NCBI RefSeq assembly: GCF_024435355.1
Contig: NZ_JAMJWG010000015.1
Location: 186,001 to 250,000 of the forward strand
Length of the DNA stretch: 64,000 nt
Source: Streptomyces odontomachi
GTDB taxonomy: Bacteria > Actinomycetota > Actinomycetes > Streptomycetales > Streptomycetaceae
Direction of reading: 5' to 3'
In this document: piece after piece, positions 34,016 to 37,294 of the stretch
Layout: every line of letters starts with the position of its first letter
Position numbering within the stretch: position 1 is the first letter of the stretch
Notes under the pieces: model-generated
Told to the model about the DNA's origin: nothing
The model's input: only the letters and a program-made list of their open reading frames with translations
Database searches by the model: none
Program-made: the position numbers and the translations under genes

Positions 34016-34049
34016 GGGGCCCGGGAGTCGTATCCAGCTCCCGGGCCCC
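34016..34049. terminator. 12-bp stem hairpin between secreted-protein gene and tRNA-like cluster
   Basis: GGGGCCCGGGAG, a 10-nt loop, then the exact complement CTCCCGGGCCCC. It can terminate the secreted-protein gene from the left and the minus-strand tRNA-like RNAs from the right. Confidence 0.75.
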
Positions 34050-34084
34050 TGGGGATGCCACCCAATTGCGCACGCCGGTGGCGT

Positions 34085-34453
34085 TTAAGAGGGCGGATCA
34101 GTCGTCAGGCCGTCGTGTTCTTCCTTTGAACTACCGCGCCAGGGTAGAGGCGCAGGCGAGAGTCGAACTCGCATCCGACGGCGGTCGTCCGTCCCCGCTT
34201 GATCCGGCGATCGGCGGCGATGCTGAAGCTTGAGCGAGAGTCTGAGTGTGATCGCGGGTGCCTCTGCCGTGTTGGGCTACCCCGGCCCGTGGTGCCGGGG
34301 GAAGGACTCGAACCTTCACCGTGACCGCGTCGTCAGGCTGAACCTCAGTTTCAGCTTGTGCTCACGCGGACCGGTCCTCAATCCGGACCGCGCTTTCTGC
34401 GTACCCCCGCGTTAGCAGGCGGGGGCGATCATGGATGCTACCCGTGGGCCCCG
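34085..34453 (-). ncRNA. Tandem tRNA-like RNA modules (Y-RNA-like candidates)
   Basis: The minus strand carries at least three successive tRNA-like pieces. Module 1 (~34453-34290) has a T-arm GAAGG-TTCGAGT-CCTTC (34317-34301), a 3' end reading CCGGCACCA, and an upstream hairpin whose loop CTGCTAAC looks like a tRNA-Ser(GCU) anticodon loop (34425-34404). Module 2 (34286-34138) is closed by a 10-bp stem GCCGGGGTAG/CTACCCTGGC, with D-arm-like TAGCCCAACACGGCAGAGGC and T-arm GCGAG-TTCGACT-CTCGC (34172-34156). Module 3 starts with D-arm-like TAGTTCAAAGGAAGAACA (34133-34116). D- and T-arms are ~100 nt apart, too far for ordinary tRNAs, and acceptor strands do not pair canonically. Bacterial Y RNAs mimic tRNA this way; pseudo-tRNAs are the alternative. 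Confidence 0.5.
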
Positions 34454-35185
34454 TCAGCCGAACAGGTAGCCGAACACCGCGTCGCCGACGCGCTGGTCGG
34501 TGACCTCGGCGCCGTTGGCCTCCTCGCGGGCGAACTTCACCGCCTGCTGGAGCTTCTCGACCCGCTCCAGCAGCTCGTTCACCCGCCGCGCGGGGAGCGC
34601 GCCGGAGAACTTCACCGTCGTCCAGTAGCCGATGGGCACGTCCTCGTAGTACACCTCGACCTGGGCCGGGTGCTTCTCGGTCGCCTCGGCCTTGACGTGG
34701 TTGCGCGGGACCTTCTTCGTGCGGATCGTGCGCACCGGGTCCGTCTTCCACCAGTCCGTGGACGGGTCGAGGGACCAGGACTCGGCGGCGTCGAGCACGG
34801 GGAGCTTCTTCACGAAGGTGTGCAGGTCAGTGAGCTGCTTCTCCAGGAAGAGCAGATAGCTGACGGGGACGTCGGCGACGATCGTCCGTCCGTCGACGGT
34901 GACGTCCGCACGGGCCGTGCAGTTGGCCCAGTCCTTGGTGGCGGTCACGTCGAACAGCCGGGTCAGCGACGTGGACATCTCGCGCAGCACGTCCTCGGCC
35001 TGGATCTGTACCCGCGTGGACTCGGGCGGCAGCTGCTCGCCCTCCTCGTCCTTCGGCTGGTACGTCCGCGCGATGCCGGCCAGCAGCGCGGGCTTCTGCA
35101 CCTTGTGGTGCGCCGCGGTGATGTCCTGGAACGACTTGCTCTTGACGCCCTTTTCCACCGCGATGATCTGATTGAGCTTCGCCAC
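34454..35185 (-). CDS. DUF7873-type protein next to tRNA-like RNAs
   Basis: A 243-residue conserved actinobacterial protein starting (V/M)AKLNQIIAVEKGVKSK at the GTG at 35185 with AAGGGGGA seven nt upstream. It is mixed alpha/beta and basic, without membrane segments: TAAHHKVQKPALLAGI, RVQIQAEDVLREM, YLLFLEKQLTDLHTFV, a strongly conserved-looking RTKKVPRNHVKAEATEKHPAQV stretch broken by acidic residues, and a C-terminal helical RRVNELLERVEKL. I associate it with DUF7873 from memory. The tRNA-like RNAs start immediately after its stop on the same strand, suggesting co-transcription and an RNA-binding role (inference). Confidence 0.7.
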   Translation of the reverse strand: MAKLNQIIAVEKGVKSKSFQDITAAHHKVQKPALLAGIARTYQPKDEEGEQLPPESTRVQIQAEDVLREMSTSLTRLFDVTATKDWANCTARADVTVDGRTIVADVPVSYLLFLEKQLTDLHTFVKKLPVLDAAESWSLDPSTDWWKTDPVRTIRTKKVPRNHVKAEATEKHPAQVEVYYEDVPIGYWTTVKFSGALPARRVNELLERVEKLQQAVKFAREEANGAEVTDQRVGDAVFGYLFG

Positions 35186-35305
35186 TTCGGTCCCCCTTCG
35201 AACAGCAGGGAACATACCTCACGGCACGCGGCACGCTCGTACGATTTTCCGCCCGTGGACCGGGCCGCGGCCGACCACTCCTCGGCGCGCCCCGCTGCCG
35301 GGACC

Positions 35306-37294
35306 TCAGCACGACGACGTGAGTTCCGGCACCCTGGGCGCCGACTGTCCCGTGATCGGCTTCAGGTGGCGGTCGTAGATCTCGGCCCACTGCGAGGTCC
35401 GTCCCGGGGACTTCATGACGGCCGCCAGCGCCGTGCACACCTCCCGGTGCAGCCCCCGCTCCTCGGGGTCCATCGCCACGCCGTAGTTCTCCGAGCCGCC
35501 GAGGCTGGACAGCGCCTTGGTCTTGTCGGCGTACTTGTGGGCGAGTCCGGCGACGATGACATCGTCGGTGGCCACCGCGTAGACGTGGGACTTCGGGTCC
35601 AGCAGCGCCGACACGCACTTCTCGTAGCCGTCCCTGACCTCCGTCCGGTCGCCCAGCCCCTCGTCCTCGAGCCACGACACGTAGGCGGAATTCCTCGCGG
35701 TGCACACCGTCGTGCTGTCGTCGTTCTGGAGGTCGCTGAGGTCGTTGTACCGCCGGTTCTTCCGCACCAGCAGGCCCTTGAGAGCCTCGTAGTAGGAGCC
35801 GGCGAACTTCACCCCGTCCGTCTTCTCGCGCTCTTTGCTCATGCTGTACGTGGCCAGTACGAGATCGACCTTGCCCTGCCGCAGGTAGTCATCGCGGTTG
35901 TCGGAGGTGACGGGGACGAACTTGACCTGCTTGCGGCTGAAGTCCAGTTCGTCGGCGATGGCATAGGCGAGGTCGACCTCGAAACCCCGATAGGTGTCGC
36001 CGGTCCGCACGCTCAACCCGGGCTGGTCGTCCTTGACGCCGACCCGCAGCTCGTCATGCGTGTCACTGAACCTGGGCCCGCCGGTCGCCGCACCCTTGTC
36101 CGAGCCGGCGGCTTCGGAGGTGCCCGCCAGCTTCACCCAGGTGAACCACGCCGCACTCGCGAGCAGCGCGGCACAGGCGACGGTCGCCGTCACCTTCCAC
36201 CGGCCCCGGCGCCGACCCGCCCCCTCGGACCTGACCCCGCCGGACACCGGCCCGCCCCGGGCGGCGCCGGCCGACTCGGCCGGCTTCGGAGGGGCGGCCC
36301 CGGCCGGCTGCACGCCAGGGGTGTCCCGAGCCGCGACCCCCTCGGTGACGGCCCGCAGCATCCGCGCCGCCTCGGCGGCGTCCGGACGCCGGCCGGGGTC
36401 CTTCCGGAGCAGCGCCTCGATCAGCCCGCCGAGCGGCCCGGCGTACTTCATGGGAGGCATCGGCGCCTCCCGTACGGCGATGAGGACCTCGAAGCTGGAG
36501 GCCCCGTCGAAGGGGCGCCGGCCCTCCACCATCTCGTACAGCGTGACGCCGAGCGCCCACAGGTCCGACGCCGCGGACGCCGGGACCGGGTTCTCCGGTG
36601 TGTGGCTGAGCAGTTCCGGCGCCAGGTACTGCGGCGTTCCGATGATCTCGTGGGACCGGGTGACCTGCGAGGCGCCCTCGAAGGTGGCGATCCCGAAATC
36701 CATCAGGAGCGCACGCCCGTTGGGGCGGAACAGCACGTTGTGGGGCTTCACATCGCGGTGCAGCACGCCGGCCTCGTGCACGGCGGCCAGCCCGCGCAGC
36801 ACCTGGAGGCCGATCCGCGCCGCGTGCGGGACGGACAGCTGCTGCTGCTCGCGCAGCAGGTCGGCCAGGGAGCGGGAGTCGAGCAGCTCCATGACGATCC
36901 AGACCTGGTTGCCGTCCTCGATCACATCGTGCACGGCGACCACGTTCTGATGCCCGATCCTGGCGATGGCCTGCGCCTCACGGCGCGCCCGGCTCACCCA
37001 CTTCGCCTGGTCGTCGGGCCCCGCGGAGCCCGGGTACAGCAGCCCCTTGACGGCCACCTTCCGGTCCAGGGTCGTGTCGAGGGCCTCCCAGACCACGCCC
37101 ATCCCACCACGCCCGAGCTGGCGCAGTAACCGGTAACGGCCCGCGATCACCGTGTCCGGTCCGTCGGCCGGTCCGTCGGCCGGCCTGTTGCCCGGCTCGT
37201 CGGCCGGTCTGTTGCCCGGTCCGTCCGGCCCGCTGTCCGGCCCGCCCTCCGGCCTGTCGTCCGGACCGCTGCCGGCCGTACCCTCGCTGCGCAT
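35306..37294 (-). CDS. Ser/Thr receptor kinase with extracellular solute-binding domain (1)
   Basis: 662 residues. A Pro/Gly/Asp-rich N-terminus (DDRPEGGPDSGPDG) precedes a PknB-like kinase domain (~53-320): GRGGMGVVWEA, VAVKGL, HRDVKPHN, MDFGIATF and LAPELL. A single membrane helix (TATVACAALLASAAWFTWV) leads to an extracellular SBP_bac_3 amino-acid-binding domain: LRVGVKDDQPGL, GFEVDLAYAIADEL, VDLVLATYSMSKERE and YGVAMDPEE. This is a direct ligand-sensing architecture, related in logic to glutamate sensing through GlnH/PknG. Codon 56 (37129-37127) is TTA. The ATG at 37294 follows GGGGG. A second gene of the same architecture lies just upstream on the same strand. Confidence 0.92.
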   Translation of the reverse strand: MRSEGTAGSGPDDRPEGGPDSGPDGPGNRPADEPGNRPADGPADGPDTVIAGRYRLLRQLGRGGMGVVWEALDTTLDRKVAVKGLLYPGSAGPDDQAKWVSRARREAQAIARIGHQNVVAVHDVIEDGNQVWIVMELLDSRSLADLLREQQQLSVPHAARIGLQVLRGLAAVHEAGVLHRDVKPHNVLFRPNGRALLMDFGIATFEGASQVTRSHEIIGTPQYLAPELLSHTPENPVPASAASDLWALGVTLYEMVEGRRPFDGASSFEVLIAVREAPMPPMKYAGPLGGLIEALLRKDPGRRPDAAEAARMLRAVTEGVAARDTPGVQPAGAAPPKPAESAGAARGGPVSGGVRSEGAGRRRGRWKVTATVACAALLASAAWFTWVKLAGTSEAAGSDKGAATGGPRFSDTHDELRVGVKDDQPGLSVRTGDTYRGFEVDLAYAIADELDFSRKQVKFVPVTSDNRDDYLRQGKVDLVLATYSMSKEREKTDGVKFAGSYYEALKGLLVRKNRRYNDLSDLQNDDSTTVCTARNSAYVSWLEDEGLGDRTEVRDGYEKCVSALLDPKSHVYAVATDDVIVAGLAHKYADKTKALSSLGGSENYGVAMDPEERGLHREVCTALAAVMKSPGRTSQWAEIYDRHLKPITGQSAPRVPELTSSC

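What the first reader, a model, noticed from the sequence alone, without database searches (positions are those of the whole stretch)
34085..35185. Tandem tRNA-mimic RNAs directly downstream of a DUF7873-type gene
Three successive minus-strand modules contain T-arms (GAAGG-TTCGAGT-CCTTC, GCGAG-TTCGACT-CTCGC), D-arm-like hairpins, a CCA end, an anticodon-like CTGCTAAC loop and a 10-bp closing stem, yet D- and T-arms are ~100 nt apart and acceptors do not pair as in tRNAs. They start immediately after the stop of a basic conserved protein. Bacterial Y RNAs (YrlA) mimic tRNAs in this way beside their protein partner Ro, but no Ro or RtcB gene is here. This may be a distinct RNA-protein system, perhaps for RNA quality control or tRNA decoy.
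Basis: partly seen in the sequence, partly recalled or inferred. Interest (0 to 1): 0.8.

Follow-up and report, generated by a model that had tools for sequence, protein, structure and literature searches.

The report
Phage-linked twin tRNA-mimic RNA with DUF7873
Right after a gene of unknown function lies an unannotated RNA that folds into two tRNA look-alikes with their halves in swapped order, and this gene-plus-RNA pair recurs together in many Streptomyces and in large phages, which points to an undescribed RNA-protein system built on tRNA mimicry.

Summary
The RNA is real and conserved but differs from the description. On the minus strand, directly downstream of a DUF7873 gene, lies a ~350-nt RNA with two (not three) tRNA-like modules. 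Each is circularly permuted: T-arm, 3' acceptor strand, short loop, 5' acceptor strand, D-arm, on an anticodon-like stem without anticodon loop. Read this way the acceptors pair fully; it is the order of bacterial Y RNA (YrlA). Features my detector did not select for support it: the Levitt pair 15-48 is A-U or G-C in 151 of 151 distinct scorable modules, and two helices enclosing module 2 covary strongly. In 150 Streptomyces genomes a model of the module-2 half hits strongly (58-159 bits) in exactly the 70 with DUF7873; the other 80 hold only module-sized or weak (<30 bits) hits. Of 80 viral contigs chosen for DUF7873, 76 carry a match. Ro60 is not beside it and occurs independently. DUF7873 has a confident model without a recognised fold relative and is not basic. 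Best reading: a phage-derived two-component RNP acting by tRNA mimicry. Protein-RNA binding and the target are inferred, not shown.

The parts
34454..35185 (-). DUF7873 (PF25283) gene, likely GTG start at 35185, 243 aa (longest ORF 34454-35215, 253 aa)
   Evidence: Pfam 409.2 bits, E 8.4e-123; homologues start at MxKLNQ; a purine-rich stretch precedes the GTG (read)
34016..34440 (-). approximate extent of the RNA, from just after the DUF7873 stop to the 3' hairpin; ends not mapped
   Evidence: extent of conservation among relatives; inferred, no transcript data
34404..34425 (-). leader hairpin CCCCCGC-CTGCTAAC-GCGGGGG
   Evidence: read; relative L003 keeps the hairpin with another loop
34253..34328 (-). 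permuted tRNA-like module 1: T-arm 34317-34301, acceptor 34300-34294 with 34286-34280, loop ACCACGG, D-arm 34277-34260, anticodon-like stem at its ends
   Evidence: YrlA 25.8 bits; detector on the window; alignment A3, 13 of 15 pairs with two-sided change
34109..34182 (-). permuted tRNA-like module 2: anticodon-like stem GCCGTC 34182-34177 with GACGGC 34114-34109, T-arm 34172-34156, acceptor 34155-34149 with 34140-34134, D-arm 34131-34117
   Evidence: YrlA 32.3 bits; alignment A4, 14 of 16 pairs with two-sided change
34089..34196 (-). inner helix enclosing module 2: 34196-34188 with 34097-34089 (8 of 9 pairs in the window)
   Evidence: not selected by the detector; 9 of 9 pairs with two-sided change, 88.8% of cells paired
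34073..34209 (-). outer helix: CGCCGG 34209-34204 with CCGGCG 34078-34073; conserved unpaired AUCRA / CUUAAACG between it and the inner helix
   Evidence: 6 of 6 pairs with two-sided change, 96.9% of cells paired
34071..34220 (-). match of covariance model R1 (module-2 half of the RNA)
   Evidence: 155.2 bits; the window is one of the 38 sequences the model was built from
34016..34059 (-). GC-rich 3' hairpin GGGGCCCGGGAG...CTCCCGGGCCCC, possible terminator without a T run
   Evidence: not flagged by the terminator scan, which needs a T run

Best explanation
The locus encodes a two-component, phage-derived ribonucleoprotein: DUF7873 plus a trans-acting ~350-nt RNA that displays two L-shaped tRNA bodies without anticodons. 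SHOWN (by sequence): two permuted tRNA-like modules with elbow bases (GG/TTC), Levitt pair and 7+5-bp acceptor-T stems; a covarying two-helix stem with a conserved internal loop under module 2; near-obligate linkage to DUF7873. INFERRED: the RNA is expressed; DUF7873 binds it, probably at the conserved stem, loop or core, as Ro60 binds Y RNA; the tRNA bodies are the effector part and engage a tRNA-handling protein. Most likely role, weakest step: in phages (half of the viral loci hold at least one tRNA) the RNP competes for or redirects a host tRNA-binding enzyme (an anticodon nuclease or an RNA-decay or processing enzyme), and Streptomyces has kept the pair as a chromosomal module.
For: Detector: 80/80, 69/80 and 12/14 downstream against 4/174 upstream. 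Features not selected by it: Levitt pair A-U 127, G-C 24, others 0 of 151 distinct modules (241 of 244 rows fit the search expression); anticodon-stem pairing mean 5.15 and 5.17 of 6 against 4.29 and 4.11 shuffled over 53 loci, above the maximum of 500 shuffles; helices under module 2 (0 of 500 shuffles reach any of the five measures). Linkage: R1 hits of 58.6-159 bits in the same 70 of 150 Streptomyces genomes as PF25283, about 133-334 nt downstream; the 80 genomes without the gene, searched again with complete lists to E 0.001, give module-sized hits up to 53.9 bits and three full-length ones of 26.9-29.7 bits. Same 6 of 296 phylum genomes. Viral loci: 76 of 80 with a match at E<=1e-4, 68 full-length, 13 of these 68 being training sequences. 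RNA upstream of the gene in L147 and on the opposite strand in L146, so it is not merely a 3' UTR. No other constant neighbour: gene clusters not overlapping DUF7873 reach at most 20 of 80 Streptomyces loci within 4 kb. The 15 Streptomyces proteins sampled form one clade (support 0.92) inside IMG/VR sequences. No significant association with Ro60: both 42, DUF7873 only 28, TROVE only 39, neither 41 of 150 (Fisher p 0.19). Analogy: YrlA couples a protein-binding stem to a tRNA-like effector domain (PMC8394870, passage), and its authors suggest competition with an anticodon nuclease (PMC7790460, passage).
Against: No expression, binding or phenotype data. DUF7873 is not basic and has no recognised RNA-binding fold. 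L118, L119 and L132 carry DUF7873 without a convincing RNA match in the fetched 2-3 kb flanks (L119 only with default filters); L187 is cut 127 nt past the gene; Lak phage L027 shows none, Microcoleus phage L021 only a 29.8-bit match 2 kb away. The stem under module 1 cannot be tested: it is too conserved (41 of 500 shuffles pair as well). The modules lack an anticodon loop, so an anticodon nuclease could not cleave them there, only bind the tRNA body. tRNAs were found in only 40 of 80 viral loci, so tRNA arrays are not the constant context.
Confidence: 0.55

Rival explanations
1. A true bacterial Y RNA: a Ro60 (TROVE) ligand that happens to sit beside DUF7873.
For: YrlA model aligns end to end to both modules; a stem-loop-stem lies under module 2; the same genome has a TROVE gene.
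Against: 28 of 70 DUF7873/RNA genomes have no TROVE match and 39 TROVE genomes have no DUF7873 (the TROVE matches cover only about 60 of 442 positions, so some may be missed); the own-genome TROVE locus carries its own Y-like RNAs; scores are far under YrlA gathering.
Confidence: 0.12
2. Permuted tRNA genes whose transcript is processed to working tRNAs, as in red algae.
For: Permuted order, 7-bp acceptors, NCCA after the acceptor in 36 of 86 first modules.
Against: No anticodon loop: the anticodon-like stem runs into conserved helices; NCCA is absent from module 2 in all 50 two-module Streptomyces and present in only 14 of 36 phage or plasmid ones. A 2014 review lists no permuted tRNA in bacteria (PMC4033280, passages).
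Confidence: 0.03
3. Double tRNA mimic for the ribosome: the two bodies, joined at their anticodon ends, occupy neighbouring tRNA sites and idle or reprogramme translation, with DUF7873 as helper.
For: Two tRNA bodies joined at their anticodon ends by a conserved core; elbow bases and Levitt pair preserved.
Against: Acceptor ends are capped by a loop in the gene; 37 of 80 viral loci show only one module in the detector; no direct evidence.
Confidence: 0.12
4. A cis-acting 3' UTR element of the DUF7873 mRNA (stability or autoregulation).
For: Directly downstream, about 133-334 nt from the Pfam match in 70 of 70 genomes, same strand (compared by eye in the listings).
Against: RNA upstream in L147 and on the other strand about 1.2 kb away in L146; size and tertiary-fold conservation exceed a UTR's usual need (judgement).
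Confidence: 0.12
5. Debris of a mobile tRNA array, or an artefact of adjacent tRNAs.
For: Tandem tRNAs can fake a permuted module (L010); some phage copies sit among tRNAs.
Against: No tRNA in the window; long-range covariation; 70 of 70 linkage although ARAGORN calls a tRNA in only 10 of 80 Streptomyces loci.
Confidence: 0.02

Closest known systems
YrlA bacterial Y RNA (RF02553) with Ro60/Rsr (TROVE)
   Same: Same permuted tRNA-like module order, two-helix stem beneath it, gene next to its protein
   Different: Partner is DUF7873, not TROVE; two modules in one RNA; an extra outer helix; score under gathering; found here in phages and Streptomyces
Ro60-Y RNA-PNPase machine RYPER (PMC8394870 passage)
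   Same: Suggested layout: protein on the stem, tRNA-like domain recruiting an enzyme
   Different: No PNPase or Ro evidence here; only an analogy
Permuted tRNA genes (Cyanidioschyzon, Thermofilum; PMC4033280 passages)
   Same: 3' half precedes 5' half; acceptor strands joined by a loop, here often with CCA
   Different: No anticodon loop; extra conserved helices; protein partner gene
Two-piece (permuted) tmRNA (recalled, no call)
   Same: tRNA-like part with swapped halves
   Different: No tmRNA match in the window; full D-arm; two modules

Membership tests
YrlA / bacterial Y RNA | tRNA-like domain with T-arm, acceptor hairpin, D-arm in this order | tested here: met
YrlA / bacterial Y RNA | reaches the Rfam gathering score (69 bits) | tested here: not met
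   32.3 and 25.8 bits; the own-genome Ro-locus RNA is also under it, 46 bits
YrlA / bacterial Y RNA | gene beside Ro60/Rsr | tested here: not met
   TROVE on another contig; 28 of 70 carriers without a TROVE match
YrlA / bacterial Y RNA | two-helix stem with Ro-binding motif | tested here: inconclusive
   two helices and internal loop found; the Ro motif itself was not tested
YrlA / bacterial Y RNA | binds Ro60 | not testable with these tools
   needs a binding assay
tRNA | cloverleaf with anticodon loop, found by tRNA finders | tested here: not met
   anticodon-like stem runs into other helices
Permuted tRNA gene | complete anticodon loop after joining the halves | tested here: not met
tmRNA | match to tmRNA models | tested here: not met
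   none in the window at gathering or by ARAGORN
DUF7873 (PF25283) | Pfam match over cut-off | tested here: met
   409.2 bits against 27

The most novel reading that the evidence does not exclude
A widespread class of phage-encoded RNPs in which a new protein fold (DUF7873) carries an RNA made of two anticodon-less tRNA bodies, and uses this double tRNA mimicry to occupy a host tRNA-binding site (anticodon nuclease, decay machine or the ribosome) during infection; Streptomyces has adopted it as a chromosomal module.
Probability: 0.35. Interest if true: 0.92.

Novelty: new variant of a known kind. Interest (0 to 1): 0.8.

Why it matters
It would show that the tRNA-mimic module of Y RNAs is a portable device used with a protein other than Ro60, and that large phages carry it widely. 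It gives a testable function to a protein family of unknown function found in phages from Gordonia to Klebsiella and Vibrio, and a clean genetic system (one gene, one RNA, patchy in Streptomyces) to ask what bacterial tRNA mimics are for.

Tried and rejected
Ordinary tRNA, tmRNA or known Rfam RNA: no match in the window. Three modules: rejected on reading the order. Leader GAGC with core GCUC as a kissing pair: both nearly constant, so covariation cannot test it; folds of the module-1 half often pair GCUGA with UCAGC instead, which also could not be confirmed (41 of 500 shuffles). Homology of the two halves (R1 hitting the module-1 half full length at 34.6-54.4 bits in L138, L151, L180, L129, L122, L141) suggests a tandem duplication but was not tested. 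Fold search: no PDB or BFVD match at E<=0.001; best VIA row Z 7.2 at rmsd 12.9, taken as noise. Sequence search of the PDB: best E 0.11. PHROGs and NCBIfam: none. Literature (open-licence PMC library only): DUF7873 0 papers; circularly permuted + tRNA-like + phage, 1 listed and not relevant; YrlA, 26 papers, listing only, none on this gene by title; permuted tRNA, Y RNA with Ro60 and phage, bacterial Y RNAs: listings, from which five papers were looked at by passages; tRNA-like + large noncoding RNA + phage 0; Y RNA + Streptomyces + Ro60 0. No promoter-like or terminator-like site was flagged near the RNA.

Caveats. R1 matches something in 148 of 150 Streptomyces genomes at E<=0.01 because module-sized hits (about positions 45-108, up to 54.8 bits) come from tandem tRNAs or Ro-linked RNAs at least in part; I counted only hits of full length (plus G305, positions 25-134). 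The list was cut near 4e-10, so searched the 80 gene-less genomes again down to E 0.001: three full-length hits of 26.9-29.7 bits (G337, G343, G422), none stronger. Covariation in A3 and A4 is inflated because the detector required T, acceptor and D pairing. R1 was built from 38 sequences, 23 of them Streptomyces and 13 IMG/VR, so the informative parts are the gene-less genomes and the 55 full-length viral hits outside the training set; several viral contigs are near copies. Shuffles do not remove relatedness. The tree is midpoint-rooted, with 15 Streptomyces tips, and IMG/VR contigs are predicted viruses. The viral loci were found by DUF7873, so they cannot show RNA without the gene. Distances assume a 150-base hit on the minus strand. 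Rows dropped: L127, L131, L153 from protein work (internal stop in the matched range); loci with acceptor loops over 14 nt from A3/A4, over 12 from A5, over 20 from A6; near copies removed before alignment.

Full report
What is there. The window lies in a Streptomyces-like genome: all six of 296 phylum genomes with the gene fall in the window's genus, and the 80 closest loci kept from genome contigs are all Streptomyces. On the minus strand a DUF7873 gene (34454-35185, likely GTG start) is followed at once by an unannotated RNA region down to about 34016. ARAGORN finds no tRNA and Rfam nothing at gathering. With a permissive search of the stretch, YrlA aligns end to end at 34195-34087 (32.3 bits) and 34340-34235 (25.8 bits), both under the gathering score of 69. 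Read in YrlA order the 'non-pairing' acceptors pair 7 of 7: T-arm, CCCCGGC, ACCACGG, GCCGGGG, TA, D-arm in module 1; T-arm, CTGCGCC, TCTACCCT, GGCGCGG, TA, D-arm in module 2. So there are two permuted tRNA-like modules, not three.

Relatives. DUF7873 occurs in 4 plasmid-collection records and 73 phage records (88 with a cyanophage query): Gordonia, Arthrobacter, Rhodococcus, Rhizobium, Vibrio, Klebsiella/Serratia, Pseudanabaena, Microcoleus and Prevotella Lak phages. In Mimi, Phendrix and NiceHouse it sits among tRNAs and is followed by an unannotated gap of 410-534 nt; that gap holds the same two modules.

Counting. A simple detector (T-stem, TTCRA loop, acceptor of at least 6 of 7 pairs, T[AG], D-stem) finds at least one module within 1 kb downstream in 80 of 80 Streptomyces (50 with two), 69 of 80 viral (32 with two or more) and 12 of 14 named loci (misses: Microcoleus L021, Lak L027), and in 4 of 174 upstream stretches. 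Pairing in those stems is partly selected, so I looked at features it does not select. The Levitt pair 15-48 is A-U in 127 and G-C in 24 of 151 distinct scorable modules, with no exception (3 of 244 rows did not fit the search expression). The anticodon-like stem pairs above every one of 500 shuffles. Two long-range helices found in a free alignment of 53 two-module loci enclose module 2: on 38 sequences the outer has 6 of 6 and the inner 9 of 9 pairs with two-sided changes, 96.9% and 88.8% of cells paired, and no shuffle of 500 and no slid version reaches the whole structure. Between them lie conserved unpaired AUCRA and CUUAAACG. The anticodon stem is poorly aligned there (59% paired). The stem under module 1 could not be confirmed.

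Linkage. A covariance model of the module-2 half (R1) was run over 150 Streptomyces genomes. Strong hits over the whole model (66.5-159 bits; one, G305, over positions 25-134 with 58.6 bits) occur in exactly the 70 genomes with PF25283, about 133-334 nt after the Pfam match, on the same strand by eye. The other 80, searched again with complete lists to E 0.001, give module-sized hits up to 53.9 bits and three full-length ones of 26.9-29.7 bits; I take the latter as chance. Over 296 phylum genomes R1 at E<=1e-11 hits the same six as PF25283. In viral loci 76 of 80 have a match at E<=1e-4, 68 of full length, 13 of these in the training set; L118, L119, L132 and L187 have none (L118, L132 and L187 also without filters). 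Pseudanabaena phage Pam2 gives 58 bits, Gordonia Ziko 76.4 and Rhizobium TM30 43 bits; Klebsiella, Vibrio and the other two Rhizobium phages match only over the module. In L147 the RNA lies upstream of the gene and in L146 on the other strand, so linkage does not depend on one transcript.

The protein. AlphaFold2 on 73 sequences gives pLDDT 90.4, pTM 0.75: long helices and long strands. No match in PDB or BFVD at E<=0.001. Invariant residues over 13 diverse members do not look like a known active site (my judgement). It is near neutral. RNA binding is therefore inferred from linkage alone. The sampled Streptomyces members form one clade within IMG/VR sequences, and no other gene is constantly beside the pair (the larger clusters there are reverse frames of DUF7873 itself, and the next ones, up to 20 of 80 loci, partly overlap the RNA): a self-contained unit, probably of phage origin.

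Ro60. The own genome has a TROVE gene on contig C25 with two Y-like modules upstream. Across 150 Streptomyces, DUF7873 and TROVE show no significant association (42 both, 28 DUF7873 only, 39 TROVE only, 41 neither; Fisher p 0.19). So the RNA is not a Ro60 appendage, although the module is of the same kind.

How it may work. For YrlA a review states that the basal stem holds Rsr and the tRNA-like domain is the effector that binds PNPase, and that tRNA-modifying DusA and TruB act on it (PMC8394870, passage); another paper suggests its tRNA-like domain could compete for an anticodon nuclease (PMC7790460, passage); a small subset of jumbo phages encodes a TROVE protein (PMC7824862, passage). By analogy I propose that DUF7873 holds the RNA and that two anticodon-less tRNA bodies capture a tRNA-handling enzyme. 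The second base after the acceptor strand is C in 165 of 172 modules, a trace of CCA; full NCCA is seen in 36 of 86 first and 14 of 86 second modules. Whether RNase P opens these loops is open. Structure and linkage I hold at about 0.95, an RNP at about 0.65, a decoy role at about 0.3.

Novelty. No paper in the held library names DUF7873, and the searches listed no description of such an RNA that I could recognise; subscription papers are not held. The module is a known kind (YrlA-like); the double RNA, its stem, its partner and its phage spread appear new.

Noticed in passing
L008:255-319 and 479-587 (own genome, contig C25): Two tandem YrlA-like modules (34.6 and 46 bits, under gathering) just upstream of a TROVE (Ro60) gene; module-only hits near TROVE genes also appear in other Streptomyces (for example G369 contig C36).
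   Followed up: partly
L010:1477-1627: Two tandem tRNAs make the YrlA model report a false permuted tRNA across their junction; a warning for YrlA scans.
   Followed up: partly
L017:3063-3591 (Gordonia phage Phendrix): A tmRNA match (89 bits, over gathering) in the phage tRNA array, not among the annotated features.
   Followed up: no
L025:4043-4126 (Klebsiella phage LPKP23); L004:2268-2357; L005:2264-2350: Parts of the RNA region are called as ordinary tRNAs (annotated 'tRNA-Stop(tta)' in LPKP23; ARAGORN tRNA-Leu and tRNA-Phe), probably misannotations.
   Followed up: partly
L016:4165-4195 (Arthrobacter phage Mimi): Near-threshold abiF RNA match (33 bits, gathering 37) inside the tRNA array.
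   Followed up: no
L007 downstream of DUF7873: A Streptomyces relative whose first module seems, by reading, to have lost its T- and D-arms while the second is kept (R1 66.5 bits), so module 2 may be the more constrained.
   Followed up: no
control genome Deinobacterium chartae: The only one of 14 control genomes with DUF7873, and also the only one with TROVE.
   Followed up: no
window 35306-37294 (-): Protein kinase domain fused to an SBP_bac_3 solute-binding domain, next to the DUF7873 gene.
   Followed up: no
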